DNA from: Metallosphaera tengchongensis
GTDB lineage: Archaea; Thermoproteota; Thermoprotei_A; Sulfolobales; Sulfolobaceae
DNA: 64,000 nt
NCBI RefSeq assembly: GCF_013343295.1
Contig: NZ_CP049074.1
Span: 1,779,501-1,843,500 of the forward strand
Direction of reading: 5' to 3'
The notes beneath the pieces are model-generated. The model was given only the letters and a program-made list of their open reading frames with translations. It was not told the origin of the DNA and ran no database searches. Position 1 is the first letter of the stretch. The number at the start of each line of letters is the position of its first letter. Below, piece after piece: positions 11,972-48,458 of the stretch. Position numbers and translations under genes: made by a program.

Positions 11972-12183
11972 CGTAACCGGACTTCCACGTGTGAAGTAAC
12001 TCCCGGATATGGGGCAAGTAGAGTAATTCGGTCAGTAGTTTTTTGTCGAACAGGAAATAGCAGATTTTAAGTTAGTGAGGGGTGAGATCATTATAACAAC
12101 ATAAACAATGCGAGTAAGGTACTGAGATCTAGGCTAGCGCTATATGTTCGCTGTCATCTCCTCTTATTTCTTGCCGGACACTT

Positions 12184-12228
12184 CATAAAGATAAACGAAG
12201 CCTCGCCATTCAGGGCGGGGAGTCAGAA
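12184..12228 (+). repeat. dispersed TnpB-type hairpin repeat, good copy
   Basis: CATAAAGATAAACGAAGCCT then CGCCATTCAGGGCGGGGAGT and CAG. It ends 15 bp before the start codon of the next gene, so it sits in that gene's promoter/leader. Confidence 0.75.
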
Positions 12229-12242
12229 ATATAGTTGGTAAG

Positions 12243-12824: not shown

Positions 12825-14173
12825 GTACTATGATATGTTCAGTACCTAAAGTTACCGTAACAACCTGGAGTAGCGGTAACGTCATACTCGCAGGGCCAAC
12901 GTACAAAGGCTACCTGGAAAAAGCGCAACAAGTTGTGAGGAATAGGGACACCGCCTCCATAATCGGCCAACCTGGCATGGGTAAAACTACCATCCTCAAG
13001 AAGCTCCAGGAATCCGTTGGCCACACCATGTTTTTCCTGGATTTAGCAAGCAAGGGCTCCATTGAGGAGGAGTTCTGGAGCAAGGTGGACCCTAGCTCGT
13101 TGAGGGCTAAGACGTTACCTAAGTTAAAGGAGATTAGCGGAAAGTTGGGGTACGGTTTCTTGAAAAAGCTAATGGGCGTAAAGTTTGAGGATTGGCTCTC
13201 AAAGTCTTGCGGAAAGCTAGACAACTTGAACTTGAGACTTTATTGTTTGGATTACCCGAGGGACTTTGACGGAATGTTAAAGATGCTCTCCGACTACAGG
13301 CAGATTGAGGACGTAGGTCTTCTAATAGATGAAGTAAGGGAGTCACACATCCCCAAGATCCACAGGTTGATTAATGCTGGTCTGGGGATTCCAGTAGTTA
13401 TGGCTATCCCAACTGACTCCTACAGCAGGGTGACGGACCTCGCCATAAGGAGGAGATTAGACGAGAGTAGAATTTCCCTGGACAGAGCTCTCACAGGTGA
13501 GGACATTCGGGAAATAATAGACGCCTATTGCCACCCGCTGGTTGAGGACCTCTTCCCCATAGTAGCTTCCCTTTGGAACGGAGGGGAGCTTAACACTGTA
13601 AGTTCGATCCTTCAGTACGTGAAGTCCCAAGTGGAGGGTTTTGAGAAGGAATGCGCCGGGGATATATCCTGCGTAAGGGAGAAGCTAAAGAGCTCCCATT
13701 CCCTGAAGAACCCTGACGAGGACTCCAAGGAACTGGAGAAACTGGTGAGGGAGACGCTTTACTCCGAGGCTAAGGACTTGGGGATCAGCTACGTCCATAT
13801 GAGGGGTAAGAGGGTCGAATCCGGAGGGAAGTACCTGGTCGTAGGCCTTTTCTTCCTCAAGGACGATCTGGCCTATCTAGGAGAGGTGAAGCTAATGAAC
13901 GACGATAGGGACTCCGACGAGGAGGTGAAGTTACTTTCAGGAGTCAACACCGTTGAACACGATAAGAAGAACTACGTCGTAGGTGGAAGGTTTGTGATAA
14001 CAAACTCCTCCAAACTTGCGACAGAGGGCAACGTGACTAAGATACAAGTGTCCACTCTAGAGGTGGTCAGAGTCCTTCACGGAGATTCGGAAATGTTAAG
14101 GGAGATAGTGAGGAGTTTCCATGGTGCTCTTTTCCAATCTACTAGCTCCAAGGTAGCTGAGACTGTAGCTTGA
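12821..14173 (+). CDS. AAA+ ATPase (Orc/Cdc6-like fold) with a possible nuclease-like C-terminal domain
   Basis: 450 aa. Walker A GQPGMGKTT at residues 49-57, Walker B VGLLIDE at 165-171, a sensor-like strand VVMAIPTDS near 193, then RRRLDESRISLDRAL, as in the arginine/sensor-2 part of Orc/Cdc6-type AAA+ proteins, and a helical lid. From about 305 on a separate domain has an acidic D348/D349 followed by E355-V-K357 on a beta strand (AYLGEVKL), an arrangement like the D...ExK core of restriction-type nucleases. It is coupled to the upstream winged-helix protein. Function unknown; DNA remodelling or defence are both possible. Confidence 0.7.
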   Translation: MSTMICSVPKVTVTTWSSGNVILAGPTYKGYLEKAQQVVRNRDTASIIGQPGMGKTTILKKLQESVGHTMFFLDLASKGSIEEEFWSKVDPSSLRAKTLPKLKEISGKLGYGFLKKLMGVKFEDWLSKSCGKLDNLNLRLYCLDYPRDFDGMLKMLSDYRQIEDVGLLIDEVRESHIPKIHRLINAGLGIPVVMAIPTDSYSRVTDLAIRRRLDESRISLDRALTGEDIREIIDAYCHPLVEDLFPIVASLWNGGELNTVSSILQYVKSQVEGFEKECAGDISCVREKLKSSHSLKNPDEDSKELEKLVRETLYSEAKDLGISYVHMRGKRVESGGKYLVVGLFFLKDDLAYLGEVKLMNDDRDSDEEVKLLSGVNTVEHDKKNYVVGGRFVITNSSKLATEGNVTKIQVSTLEVVRVLHGDSEMLREIVRSFHGALFQSTSSKVAETVA

Positions 14174-22075: not shown

Positions 22076-23012
22076 TGTCTATCACCGTGAGAATTAACGA
22101 GATGATGGAGAGGACCAAAGCCACTGTCAGAAAGTCCTGTACTTTGAACAGTCTGAACTTAGCTAGCGAAGTCTCTATGACGACCGTCAAGACAATGAGG
22201 AATATCCACTTTGCGAACATTATACCCAAATCCAACACGGCGCCCAATGGACCGGTAAGGAGACCCCATGGTAACATAAATACATTGAGGAAGACTGACC
22301 CCAACAAATAAGACTTCATGTAACTCCCCCATTTTAGGAGAGACAGTCTAGACCCAGAGTACTCGTAAATCAGCGAGTCATCTATTATACCCATCTCAGC
22401 CAATCCTGAGCTTTCGAGAGGTAACCTCCCCGTTTCGAATAGCCATAGCATGAAAAAGGCTACAGTCGCTGATATGTGGGGCAGAAGGAGGTAATTTCCC
22501 AAGGACTGCACGAATTCCATGGTAACGTAAGGGTTGTTGGTACCAGTTATTAGCGCTACTGCAATGAACACTGAGAAAAGGGTTGCCTCCCCGAGGTAGG
22601 AGAAGGAAAGGACTCTGCTGACGCCTAGGGTAACTAGGTTACTGGAGCTTTCCATAGCCTCGTAAACTTTTATGAAAGCAGCTAAAGAGAAAAGTAATGC
22701 TCCCCCTAGGAAGTCCACTGTAGGTGTTAGAAACACAGGTCTAGGGTAAACTACTGGTATCACGAACGATATAATGACATAAATAGAGAACACTAAGTAT
22801 GGACCGTAGATGAACAATACCCCTGCATTACCTGGTAGCAGGAACTCCTTCTTGAAGAGTTTAGTTATGTCGTAGTAGGGTTGAAATATACTTGGACCTC
22901 TCCTTCCCTCCACAGTAGCCTTCAGTCTCTCCATTATCCCAGCATAGAGAGGGGATAGAAGGATTGTCCCTAGAACTTGAGCTAGAGTCTCCACTACTGT
23001 AGCCAGGATCAT
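22068..23012 (-). CDS. Ehr complex membrane subunit, HyfC/NuoH-like
   Basis: About 314 aa from the ATG at 23012, which overlaps the previous stop (ATGA); the longer reading upstream is rejected. Eight TM helices. Seen: GIMERLKATVEGRRGPSIFQ, the well-conserved cytoplasmic loop that binds the hydrophilic arm in NuoH/HyfC/EchB (ERLK..xGRxGP), YDITKLFKKE, and GRLPLESSGLAEMG in place of the NuoH R-x-PFDLxEAE-E motif. This is the subunit that links redox chemistry to proton pumping. Confidence 0.87.
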   Translation of the reverse strand: MILATVVETLAQVLGTILLSPLYAGIMERLKATVEGRRGPSIFQPYYDITKLFKKEFLLPGNAGVLFIYGPYLVFSIYVIISFVIPVVYPRPVFLTPTVDFLGGALLFSLAAFIKVYEAMESSSNLVTLGVSRVLSFSYLGEATLFSVFIAVALITGTNNPYVTMEFVQSLGNYLLLPHISATVAFFMLWLFETGRLPLESSGLAEMGIIDDSLIYEYSGSRLSLLKWGSYMKSYLLGSVFLNVFMLPWGLLTGPLGAVLDLGIMFAKWIFLIVLTVVIETSLAKFRLFKVQDFLTVALVLSIISLILTVIDNG

Positions 23013-24730
23013 AGCGTCACCACCAGGATGAGGATAATGAAAGCTAATATCATGTAGACCATGTACCATGACAACGAACTGTTCATGTAAACCCTTGAGA
23101 AGACCCTAGAGAACCTTGAGTAAATCTTGGATAAGGAGACGATGGCAATCCAGAAAACGTCCGCACTGGTCTCAAGAGCATCTCCTACTTTAGTCCTTAG
23201 GATAGTCCTAAGCATCAACCTGATGTTGTTAGCTATTCCAAAAGACGTGTAAGTTAGCTTGTTACCTGATCCGTTATCCCAAGGCTCTACCCTCCTTGTT
23301 TTACTCTTGCCGAAAACGAGAACAACGGCGGAGGGTACTACTATTAGCAAAACAAGTACGTATATTGGAGATATTCCACCGAAGGAGCCTTGGGAGTAAC
23401 TAGAGACTAACACAGATCTTCCAAACATTCCGAGGTTCGGAATGGAAGCGGAAGCAGGGGAAATGACATAGCTCAGGAGAGCTAGGATCGGCATAAGCAT
23501 TCCAATCAGTGCAATTAACCTTCCCTTACCAGTCCCCTTTGGTCTAACTAGGGAGGTGAAAGAGGCGAACCTTGCCATAGCTCCAGCGGCAAACCCCTCC
23601 CCTAAGCCTATTAAGACTCCCGCTATCAAGGGGTCAAGTGCAAGCACTCCCTTTAAGGAGATACTTTCCATGAACAAGGTCTCCAAGAGAGACCAAACAG
23701 CTACTCCTCCTATAGTGGGTAAAAGACCAGACATCGAGGCGGTCAACAACACAGTCCCTAATTCAAGAGGAAGGCTTTTTTCCGTCGTTAAGTTGGACAT
23801 AGACTCACCCTTAACATATCCAGTCACCAGAAATAGACCGGTCTTTGCCAGGGAATGGGCTATAACGTAAACCGATAAGCTGAAGAAGGCGAAAGCTCTC
23901 AACAGCGCGTCGTTGGTCAGCTCAATTGAACCTAGGGCAGCCAATATGGCCCCGTTATTTTCTATCGTACTGAAGGCTAGCATGCCCTTAACGTGATCAG
24001 ATACGTAGGAGTAAAGTGCCCCAAATAATACGGAGAAAGCGCCAGTAAGGGTCAAGAACAAGCCTACCCCATCCGATTGGGGGCTAAGGCTCATCATCTT
24101 GAATATCCCGTATATTCCTGTGAGGGTCATTGAGGCGCTTAACACGGAGGATAGACTGGGCTTAGCGTTACCGTGGGCTAATGGAAGCCACTCTACTACC
24201 AAGAACGGAAATACTCCGGTTTTAAGGAGGCAGGTTTCACTCTTCTGTCCTTTGGAGAACTCAGTACGGTATTTCTAATTACCGGTTTCCTGTTTGCGTA
24301 TCTAGATACTGGAACCCTCAAGTTTGAAGAGATAAACAATACTCTTCCGCTATGGTTTACCACGTTAGGGTGGTTTCCATTCCCTCTTATAGTACCCAAT
24401 AGATGCGTAAGCAAAGACAGTCATTACTTCCCAGCCCGTGAGAAATTGTAGATAGTTTTTGGAGAGTAGGGTTACCATTATCCCTAGTACAGTACCTGAG
24501 AAAGTTAGGGAATACCACCTCTCTTGTTCATGAAACGCAGAGAAGATTGAGGAGAGAAGCCACACCGAGCCGGAAACGAGATAAAAGACCTTGAATTCCC
24601 CTGCACTCAGCCCATATATGATAAAGAACAATGATGCTATGGCTGTAGAAGTGAACGAGACCTTAGCTTTCCAGAGGGAGATGATAAGGGAGAAAATCAT
24701 GATTCCTAATGCAATAAGCTCTGGAGTCAA
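23009..24730 (-). pseudogene. Ehr complex antiporter-like subunit (HyfB/NuoL/N-type), disrupted by an internal inversion
   Basis: Minus-strand N-terminal part (24730-24365, 121 aa, TTG start) ends ...LTGWEVMTVFAYASIGYYKRE and then stops; the minus-strand C-terminal part resumes as LLKTGVFPFLVVEWLPLAHG (the canonical TM7 Lys and WLPxAH motif) and runs to 23009 (about 397 aa). The missing middle, KEAGFTLLSFGELSTVFLIT and onward to PLWFTTLG, is present but on the plus strand (24225-24370). Flipping that block would restore one open antiporter gene of about 570 aa. So either the gene is broken in this chromosome, or it is switchable, or the assembly caught one orientation. Confidence 0.85.
24225..24370 (+). 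other. inverted coding segment inside the antiporter gene
   Basis: Plus-strand frame encodes KEAGFTLLSFGELSTVFLIT, GFLFAYLDTGTLKFEEINNT and LPLWFTTLG, the TM5-TM6 part of a NuoL/N-type subunit, opposite to the flanking gene. An imperfect inverted repeat lies near both ends: 24180-24196 and, inverted, 24371-24387 (AATGGAARCCACYCTA, about 15 of 17 matching). Confidence 0.8.
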
Positions 24731-25338
24731 ATCCCTTCCCCTCCCTTGGCCTTTACTAGAGCTCTGAGGATTGATTCAGGAGTTGGAGGACATCCAGGAA
24801 TAAGGACGTCACCGCGCACATCGGGTGGGACCCCCATGACTCCTCCACTCAACGCACACACTCCGAGGAGAATTATGAGCTTTGGCTCTGGCATGGCATC
24901 ATATGCCCTTCTCAGGACTTCCTCCATTCTTGGTGACAGAACTCCCATAACAACCAGAGCGTCAGCGTGTCTAGGAGTATTTGTGAAGAATATCCCAAAC
25001 CTCGTCATGTCGTACTGGGGAGAAGAGATAAGCCTAAGCTCTACGTTACATCCACCACACGTTCCAACGTCAATGGGATACAGATAAAAGGACTTCTTAA
25101 AGGTTGGCTCCTCTTTCTCCACCTTGAATCCTAAGGGTTTACCTGTCGGAGACAACGCGGTTTCGCAATGCCTGCAGAATACGCATTTGTTTGGATACCA
25201 CTCTCCTCCACTTATGGCACCAGTGGGACATTTCACTTCCCCTTTTTCCCTCCACTCTAAGGTAGAGGGCCAAAGCACCTCCGGAAATCTCTTTTCTGTG
25301 ACGACTCCCTTCTTAATCCCTCTAAGGAACCAGTTCAA
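24727..25338 (-). CDS. Ehr small subunit: NuoB/HyfI-like with a one-cluster ferredoxin-like N-terminus
   Basis: 203 aa, TTG start overlapping the previous stop (TTGA). Residues 75-203 are NuoB/HyfI-like: CGGCNVE (adjacent cluster-N2 cysteines replaced by the hydrogenase C-G-G-C form), GVCALSGG and PGCPPTPESILRAL. The N-terminus carries C37-P followed by C52-x2-C55-x2-C58, exactly the ligand set of one [4Fe-4S] cluster of a 2[4Fe-4S] ferredoxin, so it looks like the end of a HyfH/NuoI subunit fused to HyfI. No separate NuoI gene is in the operon, so this fusion probably supplies the electron-entry cluster. Confidence 0.85.
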   Translation of the reverse strand: MNWFLRGIKKGVVTEKRFPEVLWPSTLEWREKGEVKCPTGAISGGEWYPNKCVFCRHCETALSPTGKPLGFKVEKEEPTFKKSFYLYPIDVGTCGGCNVELRLISSPQYDMTRFGIFFTNTPRHADALVVMGVLSPRMEEVLRRAYDAMPEPKLIILLGVCALSGGVMGVPPDVRGDVLIPGCPPTPESILRALVKAKGGEGI

Positions 25339-40999: not shown

Positions 41000-42106
41000 A
41001 TGTTGAAAGAAGAGGATTTTTTAGATTTCCAACACTACACGAGGTATAGGTTAGCTCAGAGGCTGAAAAGGAAGGTTCTAGAGATAGGGGAATATAGGTT
41101 ATACCTCCTAGGTGGGCAGTCTAGGAGAGGGGATGCCTACGTCATGGGGCGGGACTCCTCGACCGGGAAGTACTTCGTAATGCAGGTCTTCTCCAGCTTT
41201 CGCTACCTTGACAAGGGGCCGGAACAGATCACTGAGAGGGATCTTCGAGCCATGATGGGCTTTGACTATCATGCCTACGAGAACTTCAAGTACAGGGACG
41301 GGATAGTCATCAGGTTGCAGGGAGACCTCGTGATGAGAGTGGAGAGGTCCTTTGAACGCACTAGGCTCTCTGAGAGCGACGACCTATGGTTTCTCCCATC
41401 CTTTACCCTGCTGATGAACCAGTTCATTAGGGATAGGCTGTATCAGGAGCCTGATCTGGTACGGTTGGAAAGGTTAGTAACAATTTACTCGGAGATCATG
41501 AACTTCTTGACTGGATCAGTCCTCCCAAGGGAGTCCTTGAGGAAGGTTCTCTCCATAAAGAGGGAACTAGAGTCTAGAATTTCCGAGATCTCAGAGTTTC
41601 CGACCGTGGAGGTTAAGCTTAGAGTCCGGACTAGGAGACGCCCCAAGGATCGCGGGGAGAAGGACAGTTCCGGGTTTCCGTTAGTGGAGATCGAAAACGT
41701 TACCAGGGATAATGATTCAGAATGGCTGGGGAATAGACTTGGGTCAATTATATTCGTGGACGCGTATAGCCCAAACGTTAAGATGGCTAACGTTAGCTTC
41801 CTAGACGTAAATAGAGGTCTAGATATGTATAGGAGGGACCTGGTTAAGAGGTACAGGGAGGAGTACGTTGAGTTCATCAAGTCCAAGGAAGAGCGGTTGA
41901 ACATCATGTTGGGTCACTACACAACGCCACACTCTGTGAGGATGAAGGGAGTGTACATTAGGGGTTCCATGAGTCCCACTGTTCTAGTGTTGGAGCCAGG
42001 GAGTGTAACCTTGACCCATCCAGAGCACGGAACGGAGGAGTACTTCATCCCTAAACCATCCCTGGTCAGCTTCGAGCTTATGGGTAATAACATGAACTTT
42101 TTCTGA
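41000..42106 (+). CDS. 368-aa protein of unknown function
   Basis: Soluble, basic and Arg-rich. First part (1-105) alpha/beta with YRLYLLGGQSRRGDAYVMGR and TGKYFVMQVFSSFRYLD; a central helical stretch (110-215) with RELESRISEISE; then an Arg/Lys-rich linker (VRTRRRPKDRGEKD), and a C-terminal part with FVDAYSPNVKMANVSFLDVN and GVYIRGSMSPTVLVLEPGSV. No cysteine clusters, P-loop or TM helix. I do not recognise it. ATG 41000 directly follows the stop of the microprotein gene. Confidence 0.7.
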   Translation: MLKEEDFLDFQHYTRYRLAQRLKRKVLEIGEYRLYLLGGQSRRGDAYVMGRDSSTGKYFVMQVFSSFRYLDKGPEQITERDLRAMMGFDYHAYENFKYRDGIVIRLQGDLVMRVERSFERTRLSESDDLWFLPSFTLLMNQFIRDRLYQEPDLVRLERLVTIYSEIMNFLTGSVLPRESLRKVLSIKRELESRISEISEFPTVEVKLRVRTRRRPKDRGEKDSSGFPLVEIENVTRDNDSEWLGNRLGSIIFVDAYSPNVKMANVSFLDVNRGLDMYRRDLVKRYREEYVEFIKSKEERLNIMLGHYTTPHSVRMKGVYIRGSMSPTVLVLEPGSVTLTHPEHGTEEYFIPKPSLVSFELMGNNMNFF

Positions 42107-42139
42107 AGGGTAGTACCATACCTGACTCTCTCGACCGTA

Positions 42140-42188
42140 TAATGGTAAAGGAAGGACAAGCCTCGCCCTTTGTGGAGGGAAGTTAGCA
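42140..42188 (+). repeat. dispersed TnpB-type hairpin repeat
   Basis: ATAATGGTAAAGGAAGGACA then AGCCTCGCCCTTTGTGGAGG and GAAGTTAG; 34 bp after the stop of the 368-aa gene. Confidence 0.7.
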
Positions 42189-42339
42189 TTGTGAGGTAAT
42201 GTCAACTGGACGGACTGTGCCAGGCGGAATAGGTTGAAAAAGGGAAGATAAACCCCGACTTTCAAGGTTATGTGAAGGTCTCTAAATGACGGAAAAGTCC
42301 TCGCTTCATAAAACGACTCCCCTATGCTCAACTTAGTAA

Positions 42340-42715
42340 AGATGTGGGTCGGAGCGATCGCTCATGCAATGCGAGAGGAATGCGTCTGAGCGGTAGTAGC
42401 TGGGCTATTCCCAAGCAGCTACCGACAGAAGAAACCTGGGACGTTAGCACGCACGACACCAAAGCTGTGGAGCGAAGTGGACTTCGAGAGGAGGCAGTAG
42501 TCCTTCCAGGACAAGAGAGTAGAGTTCAAAGGTACCTGAGACAAATGCGGCGAGGAGTACAAAGGCGTATTAGGCTAAGCTAATACTCAAGCTGTCCTAC
42601 TGATGGACAACCAGGCCTGGTCATCCTTCTTTCCTTGCTGAAGCAAAGGAAAAACCTTCCACCCTTCCCAATAAAACCGTTGCATCAGATCTACTTCGGC
42701 CTTCGAAAAGTGTTT
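42340..42715 (+). pseudogene. tnpB N-terminal fragment, degenerate
   Basis: Across frameshifts the plus strand reads ANTQAVLLMDNQAWSSFF and then SLLKQRKNLPPFPIKPL, matching the TnpB region in which a Q-V-L...D-x-W-x-SFF helix is followed by K...LPP...KPP. Upstream, 42430-42560 reads RTTPKLWSEVDFERRQ and KCGEEYKGVL. The open frame of this relic runs into the amidohydrolase gene and creates a false long N-terminus there. Confidence 0.55.
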
Positions 42716-42739
42716 ATGACTCCTCTCATTAGTTTAAGT

Positions 42740-43552
42740 ATGATAGATTTTCACTTCCACGCCCCCGTGAAAGAGTTCCTCCAATACTTGGGGGAATATG
42801 CCGAGTCAGCCATTAGGTACTTCAACGCCAAGGTTGAGCTGAGGGACCTCAAGGAAACCCTTGACCAATTCAACTCCCTTGGAGTGGAGAGGTTTGTGGT
42901 CCTTCCCATAGACTCGACTTCCTTCCTTGGAAGGAAGATACCCAACGAACTGGTAAATAGGATCAGAGATGATAGGGTGATCAAGTTCATATCCGTCGAT
43001 CCTCTCAAGGCTAACTCCCTGGAGGAGCTAAAAAGGTACATCAAGGAGATGGAACCTGTAGGAGTTAAGTTTCACCCTCAGCTCCAGGGGTTTCACCCAT
43101 TAGACGAGAGGGCGCTCAAGTTGTACGAATACCTTGACAGTCTCGGAACGGTCGCAGTATTTCACACAGGTACTTCAGGTATAGGTGCAGGGGTTAGGTC
43201 TGGAATCAGGCTCGACTACGGGAGACCAATCTATCTAGACGAAGTAGCTGTTAGGTTCCCGAATCTTAAGATAGTTATGGCGCACTTCGGCTGGCCGTGG
43301 ACAGAAGAGGGAATAGCAGTTGCGCTCCACAAGCCCAACGTGTACCTAGATCTGTCAGGTTGGGCACCCAAGTACATACCTAAGGTATTATGGGACAACG
43401 TAAAGAGGCTCCAGGATAAGGTTCTTTTCGGATCTGACTTCCCCCTCGTTAGCCCCGAGAGATGGCTCAGGGAGTTCAACGAGTTAAACATACCTGGAGA
43501 TGTTAAAGACAAGATCCTGAGTAGTAACGCCAGGAAGTTGGTGGAAAGGTAA
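42740..43552 (+). CDS. amidohydrolase-2 family metal-dependent hydrolase
   Basis: 270 aa from the ATG at 42740. Metal-binding IDFHFHAP at the N-terminus, VGVKFHPQLQGFHPLD (His on strand 4), TVAVFHTGTSGIG, IVMAHFGWPW (next His) and VLFGSDFPLVSPE with the catalytic Asp: a complete amidohydrolase-2 (decarboxylase/lactonase-like) set. An open frame extends 35 codons upstream but encodes tnpB debris, and TATA-like GTTTATG (about 42711) lies 28 bp before 42740. Substrate unknown. Confidence 0.87.
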   Translation: MIDFHFHAPVKEFLQYLGEYAESAIRYFNAKVELRDLKETLDQFNSLGVERFVVLPIDSTSFLGRKIPNELVNRIRDDRVIKFISVDPLKANSLEELKRYIKEMEPVGVKFHPQLQGFHPLDERALKLYEYLDSLGTVAVFHTGTSGIGAGVRSGIRLDYGRPIYLDEVAVRFPNLKIVMAHFGWPWTEEGIAVALHKPNVYLDLSGWAPKYIPKVLWDNVKRLQDKVLFGSDFPLVSPERWLREFNELNIPGDVKDKILSSNARKLVER

Positions 43553-43558
43553 GGGGGA

Positions 43559-43605
43559 CAACTGGCAAAGGGAGGACAAGCCTCGCCCTTAGGAGATGCC
43601 AGTTG
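43559..43605 (+). repeat. dispersed hairpin repeat enclosed by a perfect 9-bp inverted repeat
   Basis: CAACTGGCA (43559-43567) and TGCCAGTTG (43597-43605) flank AAGGGAGGACAAGCCTCGCC CTTAGGAGA. Placed 6 bp after the amidohydrolase stop, so it could also act as a terminator. Confidence 0.7.
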
Positions 43606-43649
43606 GATGCAATAGTTTTACCACTATGTTTTCAACTTCAACTGAATTC

Positions 43650-43945
43650 CTCCTTGTCTGCGGGCCCGTACCGTAGACTGCAGTACTGGGTCGGATGACA
43701 GGCAAAAAACGGACTTAAGTAGTCTTCTTTGACCCACACTACTCCTCTACTCGCTGCCATAAATGCGGTAAAAAGATGAAAGAGGCTGCCCACAGGTATT
43801 CCCGCCGTCCATACTGTTATGAGGTTGGCTGCGACGTCACCGCAGTCATGGACCTCTATGGGAGGGATCTGAGCCTCTCGACTACCACAACTGATGGATG
43901 TGACTCCATACCGGTGGGGGGGGTCAAGACAGCCTGTCCCTAAAC
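43650..43945 (+). pseudogene. tnpB C-terminal half (zinc ribbon), inverted relative to its N-terminal half
   Basis: Plus strand: VVFFDPHYSSTRCHKCGKKM (C-x2-C of the zinc ribbon), KEAAHRYSRRPYCYEVGCDV (second C..C and the RDV region), TAVMDLYGRDLSLSTTTTDG and a stop. The upstream part has frameshifts (LQYWV, RMTGKKRT). The RuvC-associated R-D is changed to C-D, so the relic is inactive. Confidence 0.85.
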
Positions 43946-44830
43946 TCTCCCGGAAGCTTCTTCACATTTTTGATGAGGTCGTTGAGGTCTTCAAGGGAGA
44001 TGGATGAGACGGTTAATGAGTTAGCTGTGTCTACTAACCACTTACCTTCTTTAGCGAGTCCTCTAAGACGTCCCTAGCTCTCTTGTGGTGAGACCTTATC
44101 CTGCGTAGGACCCTGTCCTCTTTCCACTCTTCTCGTACTTCTGTAGGGACTCAGCTAGCGACTTGTTGTGGTGGGCGTCCTCCAAACGTGTTGGGATCTT
44201 GACGTACTTTTCGTCGCCTTTACCTACAACTAGTTCAGCCATGATGTCGACTGCGACACTGTCTCTAGCTTTAGGCCATTTCCAGTCCTTCAGGATAGTG
44301 ACCTTCAAGTACGCTTTACCATCCCTCAGCGCTGACCTGGCCTCCATCACTTCCCAGTCCTTGTACTCCGATAAGTCCCTTGGATAACCTTCTATATGTA
44401 TTGCGCCGACTCCCGCTACCCTTAAGCTCATCTTGTTGAAGTTAGTTGAAAACGGTAGGACTGGGGTTAACCACATAGAGACGTTAAGTACACTCGGGTA
44501 CCTACCGCGTTTAGGGTTGTTTAACCATGACTTGTACTTTGCGATTGCATCTCTATGGCAGTCTTGGGCGACTTTAGACGGTAGGACGACTTCTCTCGGT
44601 GTTCAGTAATTACCTTTGTGTGTATCTTTTACTTTTAACAACTTCTTTGGCTTGTTCTCCCTTAACCAGTTGAGGATGAAACGTAGGCCTTTTCCATAGT
44701 TTGAGACAACGCTGAGCAGAAAGGCGGTGGGGGAAACCTTTATTGGAACTGTGGCTCTGGTTCCATTCCCACTCTTTTTAGCCCTTACGCCATAAATAGA
44801 AATAGAAAAAAAGTCTATGCCATTTGCCAT
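43935..44830 (-). pseudogene. tnpB N-terminal and middle part
   Basis: Minus strand, one frame from 44830 to 44096 with a single internal stop: ISIYGVRAKKSGNGTRATVP, RFILNWLRENKP, LPSKVAQDCHRDAIAKYKSW, then WLTPVLPF, DSVAVDIMAELVVGKG (RuvC Asp present), IPTRLEDAHH and SLAESLQKYE; after a frameshift, LEDLNDLIKNVKKLPGEFRD. It ends exactly where the plus-strand fragment (43650-43945) would continue. Product would have been an IS200/IS605 RNA-guided nuclease, ancestor of Cas12. Confidence 0.88.
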
Positions 44831-44866
44831 CCCGCTGGGCGAGGCTTTCCCTACTTTGTAAACAAC
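44822..44866 (-). repeat. dispersed hairpin repeat over the tnpB pseudogene start
   Basis: Minus strand GTTTACAAAGTAGGGAAAGC then CTCGCCCAGCGGGATGGCAA; its end overlaps the pseudogene ATG. Shares its 5' extension with the copy at 39286. Confidence 0.65.
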
Positions 44867-44959
44867 ACGGCGTAGTTAAGCTATTGACTATTATTATAGT
44901 CTAGATCTTTTTGAAAGCCCTATTCCATGATTCCCCTATTCTCTAATTTCCACTTGGTT

Positions 44960-45275
44960 ACTGTAGCGAAGCCGTAGTCAGCAGTTTCCGTGAGACCATT
45001 AAGTCTATATAACCTGGAATGTTGAGGACTTTATATACTGCAAAGGCAAACGTGGGGTCTTGCCCCAGATGTGGGCCTGTATCCCGAAAGGCTGGCAAGG
45101 CATATGAATAGTCCAAGATGTGCAGGTTCCCCCACTTAGATAACATACCGTCTAGGTGGGTCTGGGTTTATCCCGCTAATGGGGCGGGGGAGGATGAAGG
45201 AAAACCTGCTCGACTCCCGTGAAGCCCAAGGGTTGAGGATTGATATCAAGTATGAGATCCGATGAGACCCAAACC
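44960..45275 (+). pseudogene. tnpB C-terminal tail remnant, copy F
   Basis: Plus strand reads, with frameshifts, SCPRCGPVSRKAGKAYE, then IPLMGRGRMKENLLDSREAQ and GLRIDIKYEIR plus stop at about 45264. Nucleotide similarity to copies A, G and H spans about 280 bp from the GTTTCCGTGAGACCAT box to beyond the stop. After the stop comes GAGACCCAAACCCCTTAAGG, probably the element end. Confidence 0.75.
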
Positions 45276-45460
45276 CCTTAAGGGAGGAGTTATGAGTTTA
45301 ACTTTTAGAGGAAGCTCAGAATCTACTTCTCCTCGGTTATTCCTCTCACTCTCCATCCATGCCTTAGGAGCTAGGCTTTCCTCTGTCATCCTGAAATTCA
45401 GAGCTTGAAGAGGATCCTTTCCTTGAAATTCCCCACTAATAGTGAATAACACTTTTAGGT

Positions 45461-45478
45461 AAATAAATTGATTTATTT
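45461..45478 (+). promoter_or_regulatory. perfect AT palindrome directly before the MBL start codon
   Basis: AAATAAAT-TG-ATTTATTT, 8-bp inverted repeat ending one base before ATG 45480. May be an operator over the transcription start or simply AT-rich promoter DNA. Confidence 0.4.
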
Positions 45479-45479
45479 T

Positions 45480-46199
45480 ATGATGATATTCAGACAGCTC
45501 ATATCTAAAACGGGAGGGTGTGTAACATACGTTCTAGGTTGTACTCAGGCTGGTGAGCTCATAGTCGTTGATCCAAAGTTAGATATGGTGGACCAAGTGC
45601 TTGCTCTATCGGAGGGCCTTAAGATGAGGATATCCTATATAATTGATACGCATACCCATGCCGATCACGTTTCTGGATCTAAGAAGCTCTCGGAAATCAC
45701 CAAGGCTAACTTGTACATGCATGAGGCTACGAAAGTCAAGTTTGCAGAGAAGGTACGAGATGGCGAGCTTATAGTTGCTGGTAATACCAAAATTAAGTTC
45801 ATCCACACCCCGGGACATACCCCTGACAGTGCTTCCCTTTTGATAACTGATGTGAGGAGAGGCGACGAACCTTGGGCTGTCCTCACTGGGGATACCCTTT
45901 TCGTCGGTACAGTAGGAAGGATCGATATTGTTGGGGAGAACGCGGCTGAACGCCTCTTTGAAAGTCTGCAGAGGTTGAAGACCTTACCGGACTACGTGGA
46001 AGTTTACCCTGCACATATATCTGGTTCTGTATGCGGTTTCGGCCTTAGCGGTAAACCTTCATCTACCATAGGCTTTGAGAGGAGATATAACACCTTGTTT
46101 AGGTTGGAGGATAAAGAGAAATTCGTGAATAACTTAAGGTCCGCTAAGGCCTACAGACCAAAGGAGTTTGATGACAATATAAGGATGAACCTTGGTTAG
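45480..46199 (+). CDS. MBL-fold persulfide dioxygenase (ETHE1-like) / glyoxalase II family
   Basis: About 239 aa from ATG 45480. Metal site DTHTHADHVSGSKKL (T-H-x-H-x-D-H), IHTPGHTPDSASL, GDTLFVGTVGRID and the ETHE1-type PAHISGSVCGFGLSGKPSST followed by IGFERR. The absence of a C-terminal glyoxalase II domain and the SGKPSSTIGFE motif point to persulfide (glutathione-persulfide-type) dioxygenase activity, converting sulfane sulfur to sulfite with O2. This suits a sulfur-oxidising thermoacidophile. Not in an operon. Confidence 0.87.
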   Translation: MMIFRQLISKTGGCVTYVLGCTQAGELIVVDPKLDMVDQVLALSEGLKMRISYIIDTHTHADHVSGSKKLSEITKANLYMHEATKVKFAEKVRDGELIVAGNTKIKFIHTPGHTPDSASLLITDVRRGDEPWAVLTGDTLFVGTVGRIDIVGENAAERLFESLQRLKTLPDYVEVYPAHISGSVCGFGLSGKPSSTIGFERRYNTLFRLEDKEKFVNNLRSAKAYRPKEFDDNIRMNLG

Positions 46200-46212
46200 C
46201 GCATCAAGTTGC

Positions 46213-46248
46213 GTTCAACTACTCCATATAGTTCAACTACTCCATATA
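46213..46248 (+). repeat. two tandem 18-bp units
   Basis: GTTCAACTACTCCATATA occurs twice back to back, then GTTGG; followed by AGTTG-GTCGTA-CAACT, a small hairpin, 40-60 bp after the MBL stop. Confidence 0.6.
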
Positions 46249-46284
46249 GTTGGTCGTACAACTTTAGAGCTATAAAATGCCACA

Positions 46285-46535
46285 GGGGTTTGGCTTTCAT
46301 CGGATCTCATACTTGATATCAACCCTCAACCCTTGGGCTTCACGGGAGTCGAGCAGGTTTTCCTTCATCCTCCTCCGCCCCATTAGCGGGATAACCCCGA
46401 CCCACTTAGACGGAGTACCGTGTAAGTGGGGGAACCTGCACATTCTCAGGTAGATGTTCAATGACGCGTTCAACTGCCTGTCTAGTCTGGACCCACACCT
46501 CTAGCATTCAAAGGCCTTACCTACCTTTCGGGATA
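46285..46535 (-). pseudogene. tnpB C-terminal tail remnant, copy G (best preserved)
   Basis: One open minus-strand frame of about 68 codons: RCGSRLDRQLNASLNIYLRM (end of zinc ribbon plus RuvC-III-like D-x-N), CRFPHLHGTPSKWVGVIPLM, GRRRMKENLLDSREAQGLRV, DIKYEIR, stop. Starts immediately downstream of the trmB-type gene. Upstream tnpB sequence is missing. Confidence 0.8.
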
Positions 46536-46556
46536 GAGGTCAGTTGTTCAACAGGA

Positions 46557-47267
46557 CTACTGCACGACCTCAGGTTCACTAGGGACGTATATAAACCTGG
46601 ACGAGTTAAACGAAAATTTGAAATGTTCTATTGAATGGACTATACATCCTGGACAGCTCTCTACGGTGAGGTAACTCTCATCTGTGAAGATGACGCTTAC
46701 CTCATCGTCGAATATTAAGTATTTAGCTCCAATTGTGTCGCTTACCCTGATGTCACCTCTTAAATTTTTCACTCTCTTAACGTCTCCTTGGTCTACAACG
46801 AGCGTCAGGTCCCCTTGGAACCTCTCAAGGGCCTTCACTAGCCAGCCAGGAATTCCACGATAGACTCCCTTAATCGTCTTTGACTCGGAGATTCTGGTCT
46901 TAATGAAATTCATTACCTGCCTCCTTCCTTGAATAACTCCAGGGTTCTCCCCTCTTTTTATCTTAACAGCATTACGGATCTCGCTCTTTATTTCGTCAAC
47001 CTGATTAATCACGCTTTCCTTGTAATTTTCAAAGCTTAGGTTTGGATCAACCAACCTTATTCTCTTCGGCCTAGAGTTTATCACCTTCACAAACCCTTTC
47101 TTCTCTAGCCTTGATACTACTTCATACGTCTTTTGGTAAGGAACACCAGACACCTCAGAGAGGGTTTTCATCTTCGTTTCACAGAGGCTAACTATGGCTG
47201 AATAAACCTTGCTCTCGTAATTGGAGAAACCTATCCTCACCAGTTTCTCCTCCAATTCACCACTCAT
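46557..47267 (-). CDS. TrmB-family transcriptional regulator
   Basis: 236 aa. Winged helix at 8-75: NYESKVYSAIVSL, TLSEVSGVPYQKTYEVVSRL (recognition helix) and EKKGFVKVINSRPKRIRLVD, the TrmB pattern, then a helix and an effector-type domain with VYRGIPGWLVKALERF and a C-terminal HSIEHFKFSFNSS. It is divergent to an MFS gene 42 bp away, and an 8-bp palindrome covers its start codon, so it probably controls itself and the transporter, perhaps in response to a sugar or the transported compound. Confidence 0.85.
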   Translation of the reverse strand: MSGELEEKLVRIGFSNYESKVYSAIVSLCETKMKTLSEVSGVPYQKTYEVVSRLEKKGFVKVINSRPKRIRLVDPNLSFENYKESVINQVDEIKSEIRNAVKIKRGENPGVIQGRRQVMNFIKTRISESKTIKGVYRGIPGWLVKALERFQGDLTLVVDQGDVKRVKNLRGDIRVSDTIGAKYLIFDDEVSVIFTDESYLTVESCPGCIVHSIEHFKFSFNSSRFIYVPSEPEVVQ

Positions 47268-47274
47268 GGTGAAT
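47255..47274 (+). promoter_or_regulatory. palindromic operator in the trmB-type/MFS divergent region
   Basis: ATTCACCA-CTCA-TGGTGAAT, perfect 8-bp inverted repeat, covers the ATG of the TrmB-type gene and lies 35 bp before the MFS ATG. A related half site ATTCATCATACATGAA overlaps the MFS start. Confidence 0.6.
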
Positions 47275-47309
47275 AATTCTAATCTATTTCTTAAAAGGAT
47301 TCATCATAC

Positions 47310-48458
47310 ATGAAAATATCTTTTCACGTTTTCACGGTGATGGTCTTTCTCACTGGACTATTCTTGGGAGTACTTAGGCTAGCGTATCCAGTTATTGAGA
47401 TCAACTCCTACTCATATGTCCTTTACTCCCTCATAGTGTTCGGGGTCGTTAAGTCCATAATGAACTATGTTTCTGGCCACCTCTCGGACTTTATTGGAAG
47501 AAAGAAAGTCCTCCTTCTTGGATGGTTGGCAGCATTGCCCATATCAGTATTTGGTCTGTTCAGGAGCTCCGAGGTCTTGATTTTACTTACAGCTTTTCTG
47601 GGGGTTAACCAAGCCCTCACTTGGACGACCACTGTTACGTCACAGATAGACCTCACTGGAAAGAAAAGGGCAGGTTTGGCTGCTGGATTTAACGAGACTT
47701 TCGGATATTTAGGAGTTGCCCTTGGAAACTTCATCGCGGGAATTCTTATCGAAAGTGAAATCTCCCCTTACCTCTTCCTGCTCTTTACCTCGCTACTGGC
47801 ACTCTCCATAGGTAGCTCTGTAAGGGAAACTAAGCCAAGCCAAGGCGTTACCTCTAGGCTCAGCCTCACATCTCCCCTATTAATTGGAATGGCTGGGCTC
47901 CTGGAAAAATTTGTTGATGCGTTCTTTTGGGTTCTGGTTCCCCTCTACCTGTATCTAGAGAAACAGAGTCCTCTGGAAATAGCCACTATAGTTACAATAT
48001 ATTCCATGAGTTGGGCTAGCCTTCAGACACCAATGGGGCACATCAGCGATGTGAGGGGAAGGACTGGAATCATCTTAATTGGGTTTACCTTAATGTCTAT
48101 TGGGGTAGCGTCCTTTCCGCTCAATTATTACCTATCAGCCTTGATTTCAGGAATTGGGATGGCCATGGTTTATCCAACTCTGATTGCCCTCGTTAATGAC
48201 GATGCCGACATCGCTGTTAGGGGGAGGGCTCTGGGAGTTTATAGGCTACTGAGAGACGGCGGATACGCCATTGCCGGGTTGTTCTTCTTCTTTACTTACC
48301 ACACCCCTTCGTGGTCAATCGTGGTTGTAGTTATGTGTCAAATCCTGGCAATGATTACAATCTCATGGCGTTCAAGGATAAGGATTTCTCAGAAGATTGA
48401 CCTGTTAAAATCCAAATTATTCTCAAAAGGAAACGGAAATTACCGAGGTTGGTCTTAG
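47310..48458 (+). CDS. MFS transporter controlled by a divergent TrmB-type regulator
   Basis: 382 aa, 12 TM helices. GHLSDFIGRKKVLLLGWL (loop 2-3 motif A) and GHISDVRGRTGIILIGF (loop 8-9), with NQALTWTTTVTSQIDLTGKK around residue 100 as in MFS sugar or metabolite exporters. The basic C-terminus (SKLFSKGNGNYRGWS) is cytoplasmic. Leaderless or near-leaderless: TCTTAAAAG is about 20-25 bp upstream. Substrate unknown. Confidence 0.87.
   Translation: MKISFHVFTVMVFLTGLFLGVLRLAYPVIEINSYSYVLYSLIVFGVVKSIMNYVSGHLSDFIGRKKVLLLGWLAALPISVFGLFRSSEVLILLTAFLGVNQALTWTTTVTSQIDLTGKKRAGLAAGFNETFGYLGVALGNFIAGILIESEISPYLFLLFTSLLALSIGSSVRETKPSQGVTSRLSLTSPLLIGMAGLLEKFVDAFFWVLVPLYLYLEKQSPLEIATIVTIYSMSWASLQTPMGHISDVRGRTGIILIGFTLMSIGVASFPLNYYLSALISGIGMAMVYPTLIALVNDDADIAVRGRALGVYRLLRDGGYAIAGLFFFFTYHTPSWSIVVVVMCQILAMITISWRSRIRISQKIDLLKSKLFSKGNGNYRGWS

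What the first reader, a model, noticed from the sequence alone, without database searches (positions are those of the whole stretch)
43650..44830. A second in-place inversion: tnpB split into two convergent halves
The minus-strand half (44830 to 43935) ends at ...KKLPGEFRDRL and the next expected part (LQYWV through the zinc ribbon to the stop) lies directly beside it on the plus strand (43650-43945). This is the same type of lesion as in the Ehr antiporter, 20 kb away. Two such events in one window suggest a genome-wide process making short inversions, possibly linked to the hairpins or to short inverted repeats.
Basis: partly seen in the sequence, partly recalled or inferred. Interest (0 to 1): 0.7.

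Follow-up and report, generated by a model that had tools for sequence, protein, structure and literature searches.

The report
Small flipped segment inside dead tnpB
In this heat-loving archaeon a dead transposon gene has had its last ~265 bases flipped in place, and the same kind of small flip turned up at five other places in the genome, which suggests a recurring error of DNA repair or copying rather than a programmed switch.

Summary
Window 43668-43931 (+) is the 3' end (last RuvC motif, zinc ribbon, stop) of the same IS200/IS605-type tnpB copy whose body lies at 43929-44866 (-). The copy's right-end motif (GGAGGAATTCAG, 43642-43653) lies just beyond the flipped piece and still points the same way as the body, so the flip is internal to one element. 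That argues strongly against independent insertions. The Ehr-type antiporter inversion 19.5 kb away (~24228-24372) is also real. A scan of 920 kb (42%) of this Metallosphaera genome, using repeat families as reporters, gave four more in-place inversions of ~145-645 bp, all in tnpB copies of two families. A higher rate than in relatives is only suggestive (binomial p 0.016-0.13, depending on how ambiguous cases are counted). The proposed link to hairpins or short inverted repeats is not supported: junction inverted repeats are 3-6 bp, no more than chance (combined p 0.28), breakpoints share no motif, and several junctions show small losses or unmatched bases. Best explanation: spontaneous microinversions by end-joining-type repair or local template switching, visible mainly in dead DNA.

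The parts
43929..44866 (-). Left end plus first ~3/4 of a decayed tnpB (body), in original orientation
   Evidence: 79.8% identity over 944 bp to L002, matches to 15 other copies; left end shared at ~44861-44866; stops and frameshifts
43668..43931 (+). Inverted 3' part of the same tnpB: last RuvC motif, zinc ribbon, stop
   Evidence: 77.8% identity over 270 bp to L002 on the strand opposite to the body; frameshifted
43642..43653 (-). Right-end terminus of the element (GGAGGAATTCAG; family GGAGGAAGTCAG), not inverted
   Evidence: Alignment of right ends of paralogues; pattern search
43654..43667 (.). Outer junction: ~14 bp matching neither side well
43929..43932 (.). Inner junction; ~10-12 bp of the family sequence between body and tail not found
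   Evidence: L002 positions 1490 and 1501 flank the gap; q960/q973 in L006
24228..24372 (+). Sister event: inverted ~145-bp segment inside the Ehr-type antiporter gene (gene 24745-23012, minus)
   Evidence: tblastn of four Metallosphaera homologues, DNA alignment, relatives' stretches

Best explanation
One IS200/IS605-type tnpB element was inserted on the minus strand. A ~265-bp stretch, from just after ...EFRDRL to the base of the right-end hairpin, was later cut out and rejoined (or recopied) in reverse at the same place. The inverted piece carries the last RuvC motif and the zinc ribbon, so the gene cannot make TnpB. This is one of a recurring class of spontaneous microinversions in this genome: at least six of ~145-645 bp in the 42% examined. 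Most likely they arise when two nearby breaks are repaired by end joining that needs almost no homology, or by local template switching; they persist mainly in DNA that is not under selection. Shown: the inversion, its confinement to one element, the recurrence and the lack of junction repeats. Inferred: the repair mechanism and the order of inversion and gene decay.
For: Collinear paralogues. Right-end terminus in body orientation just outside the flipped piece. Five other in-place inversions: Ehr, L007/L133 with both flanks collinear, L167, L193 and L183. Junction inverted repeats 3-6 bp, combined p 0.28. Missing or unmatched bases at junctions, e.g. 28 and 46 bp of L080 sequence at L007 and ~9 bp at Ehr. 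End joining with very short homology and small indels, without a known Ku, is reported for the related Saccharolobus islandicus (PMC12019639).
Against: No un-inverted allele of the same locus is available (the family is absent from the other Metallosphaera genomes searched), so exact scars are inferred from 70-80% identical paralogues. L193 has a 6-bp junction repeat (p 0.03) and L167 an apparent ~11-bp duplication, which fit template switching rather than simple rejoining.
Confidence: 0.75

Rival explanations
1. Two independent tnpB insertions in opposite orientation, each truncated, happen to abut.
For: Such neighbours exist in these genomes: L099 and L137 carry opposed tnpB tails.
Against: In L099 and L137 the opposed parts cover overlapping ranges of the gene; in the window they are complementary to within ~12 bp, share the nearest copy L002, and the right-end terminus faces the body's way.
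Confidence: 0.03
2. Reversible programmed inversion (inverton or phase-variable segment) run by a recombinase at inverted repeats.
For: Segment sizes fit, and in the Ehr gene the flanks and the flipped piece are still open frames.
Against: No inverted repeat above chance at any junction, no shared motif, bases lost or altered at junctions, and several targets are dead genes.
Confidence: 0.06
3. Assembly artefact: local mis-orientation in the reference.
For: Only one assembly of this genome was available; no reads could be examined.
Against: Six sites with different sizes; junctions with missing or unmatched bases rather than clean flips; the inversions do not sit between long repeats, where assemblers err; a similar candidate exists in another genus (L140).
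Confidence: 0.06
4. TnpB nuclease activity causes the breaks, so tnpB loci are hot spots for inversion.
For: All five repeat-family inversions are in tnpB copies, which make up 35% of the diverged repeat DNA (0.348^5 = 0.005).
Against: The other repeats include working genes in which an inversion would be removed by selection, so the comparison is biased. The Ehr inversion is not in a tnpB. Breakpoints lie at different places in the gene.
Confidence: 0.08

Closest known systems
Microinversions described between human and chimpanzee (PMC8755829)
   Same: Short segment reversed in place without other rearrangement
   Different: Those are 17-33 nt and all flanked by inverted repeats; these are ~145-645 bp with no such repeats
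Invertons / conservative site-specific inversion (e.g. PMC5903667, PMC11892184, abstracts only)
   Same: In-place inversion of a short segment
   Different: Invertons flip between inverted repeats by a recombinase and are reversible; no repeats here, and reversibility could not be tested
Primase (PriSL)-mediated end joining in Saccharolobus islandicus (PMC12019639)
   Same: A repair route in the same archaeal family that needs almost no homology and leaves small indels, as at these junctions
   Different: The paper reports repair of breaks with small indels; the term 'inversion' does not occur in its text
IS200/IS605-type tnpB elements
   Same: The host gene is a member: intact relatives match the TNB domain and solved TnpB/Cas12f chains
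   Different: This copy is dead: decayed and with its 3' quarter inverted

Membership tests
In-place microinversion | Segment reversed at its original position with both flanks collinear with uninverted relatives | tested here: met
   Body and right-end terminus in place, tail reversed
In-place microinversion | Flanking inverted repeats, as in the human/chimpanzee set | tested here: not met
   Longest junction repeat 5 bp in the window copy, p 0.11; all events combined p 0.28
Inverton | Inverted repeats at both ends of the segment acting as recombination sites | tested here: not met
Inverton | Both orientations present in the population | not testable with these tools
   No reads available
IS200/IS605-type tnpB element | TnpB with RuvC motifs and zinc ribbon | tested here: met
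   Intact family members L079/L080: PF07282 E 6e-21 and solved TnpB/Cas12f chains; window copy homologous in two parts
IS200/IS605-type tnpB element | Conserved left and right ends | tested here: met
   Left end at ~44861-44866 and right-end terminus at 43642-43653

The most novel reading that the evidence does not exclude
This Metallosphaera lineage has an unusually active process that makes 0.1-0.7 kb inversions without flanking repeats, perhaps from homology-poor end joining, and its decayed tnpB copies act as a natural recorder of it.
Probability: 0.3. Interest if true: 0.62.

Novelty: new member of a known kind. Interest (0 to 1): 0.4.

Why it matters
Short inversions inside genes are easily missed: they look like truncated or split genes. 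Multi-copy dead tnpB elements can be read as recorders of such events, which gives a way to measure how archaea without known Ku-type end joining mis-repair DNA. It also warns that some truncated genes in Sulfolobales annotations, such as the antiporter here, may be recent local inversions.

Tried and rejected
Independent insertions: rejected (complementary ranges, common sister, right-end orientation). Hairpin or inverted-repeat cause: junction repeats at chance level. The 21-nt inverted repeat 43568-43588 / 44837-44857 pairs the element's left end with a left-end-like motif outside the element; neither arm is at a breakpoint. Rfam search of 42000-47500: nothing. Synteny with other Metallosphaera stretches: too few shared genes for a gene-based rate in the window, and only Ehr was found. 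Orthologous locus in other species: none. G001 candidate L118/L229: a 1.25-kb, 94%-identical piece beside a 61%-identical flank, a different kind of event and not counted as accepted. L170/L198: overlapping matches between two copies only, not counted.

Full report
WHAT IS THERE. The window lies at G000:C1:1779501-1843500 of a 2,176,897-bp single-contig genome. Its genus set includes genomes whose lengths are those I recall for M. sedula and M. cuprina, so the genus is Metallosphaera. By elimination it may be M. tengchongensis, but the paper on that species lists 2.10 Mb, so the species is not settled. Window 43929-44866 carries, on the minus strand, the left end and the first three quarters of a tnpB gene. 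Window 43668-43931 carries the last quarter on the plus strand. In the closest paralogue, L002, the two parts are collinear and 10 bp apart. Both parts contain stops and frameshifts, whereas intact 382-aa relatives (L079, L080) match the Cas12f1-like TNB domain and solved TnpB/Cas12f chains.

WHY IT IS ONE ELEMENT. The right end of this family finishes in GGAGGAAGTCAG. In the window GGAGGAATTCAG lies at 43642-43653 on the minus strand, the orientation of the body, just outside the reversed piece. So left end, body and right-end terminus are in place and only the tail between them is reversed. True neighbouring insertions look different: in L099 and L137 the opposed parts repeat the same region of the gene.

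RECURRENCE. The Ehr-type antiporter lesion is real: ~145 bp (24228-24372) is reversed within a gene otherwise collinear with 571-590-aa homologues. A second copy of the same tnpB family, L007/L133, has its middle ~640 bp reversed between collinear 5' and 3' parts. An all-against-all comparison of 920 kb of this genome (42%) found these two tnpB cases plus three in a second tnpB family (OrfB_IS605 Pfam match): L167 4100-4515, L193 ~12076-12240 and L183 ~13160-13302. L183 rests on comparison with L171 and L167 only and is the weakest of the set. All single-partner hits are normal copies paired with these derived loci.

IS THE RATE UNUSUAL? With the same strict scan, stretches of G010 (400 kb), G017 (400 kb) and pooled G003/G004/G005 (240 kb) gave none, and G001 (500 kb) one doubtful case. 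Per kb of diverged repeat DNA this is 5 in 130 kb against 0 in 169 kb for the within-genome sets (p 0.016). Counting the doubtful G001 case gives p 0.06; adding a candidate ~980-bp inversion in G010 (L140; complementary parts 725 bp apart, so outside the scan's gap limit) gives p 0.13. The stretches were chosen with knowledge of tnpB positions in G000 and G010, so this is a suggestion and not a measured rate difference.

MECHANISM. The best inverted repeat at the junctions is 3-6 bp within 8 bp of each breakpoint; against random positions in the same sequence the combined p is 0.28. Breakpoints fall at different places in the gene and share no motif that I could see. Sequence is missing or unmatched at several junctions: ~12 bp at the inner and ~14 bp at the outer junction of the window copy, 28 and 46 bp of L080 sequence at L007, ~9 bp at Ehr, ~31 bp at one side of L167. 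These lengths are approximate because the paralogues are 70-80% identical. The pattern fits rejoining of two nearby breaks with little homology, or local template switching. S. islandicus primase supports such end joining and no Ku homologue is known there (PMC12019639). Which of the two acted is not shown.

COMPARISON. Definite microinversions between human and chimpanzee are 17-33 nt and all flanked by inverted repeats (PMC8755829); these are larger and lack such repeats. Invertons need recombination-site repeats, which were tested and not met. My literature search found no report of this pattern in archaea, but the library is partial. From memory, intragenic invertons have been reported in bacteria; that paper was not held.

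LIMITS. No reads, no sister strain, 42% of the genome, and reporters that are mostly dead tnpB. The link to tnpB itself (all five repeat-family events) may only reflect that dead DNA tolerates inversions.

Noticed in passing
window 23012-24745: The Ehr-type antiporter gene with the inversion still has open frames on both sides and in the flipped piece, so this inversion looks recent.
   Followed up: partly
window 45066-45282 and ~46284-46443 (opposite strand): A ~215-bp repeat with at least 25 copies in the genome, no Rfam match; two opposed copies flank a metallo-beta-lactamase-like gene at 45468-46199.
   Followed up: no
window 27945, 29947, 36447, 39318, 49214, 53161, 56512, 60603: Right-end-like GGAGGAAGTCAG motifs, 11 in the window against 0.6 expected: probably short IS605-end remnants or miniature elements between genes.
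   Followed up: no
window 43568-43588: A solitary left-end-like motif on the + strand just outside the element, with about ten other ~28-bp matches in the genome.
   Followed up: partly
L140 1680-3626 (G010:C1 ~1406180-1408126): In another genus, a tnpB tail (+) and body (-) with complementary ranges 725 bp apart, with an apparent HTH-type gene between: candidate ~980-bp inversion.
   Followed up: partly
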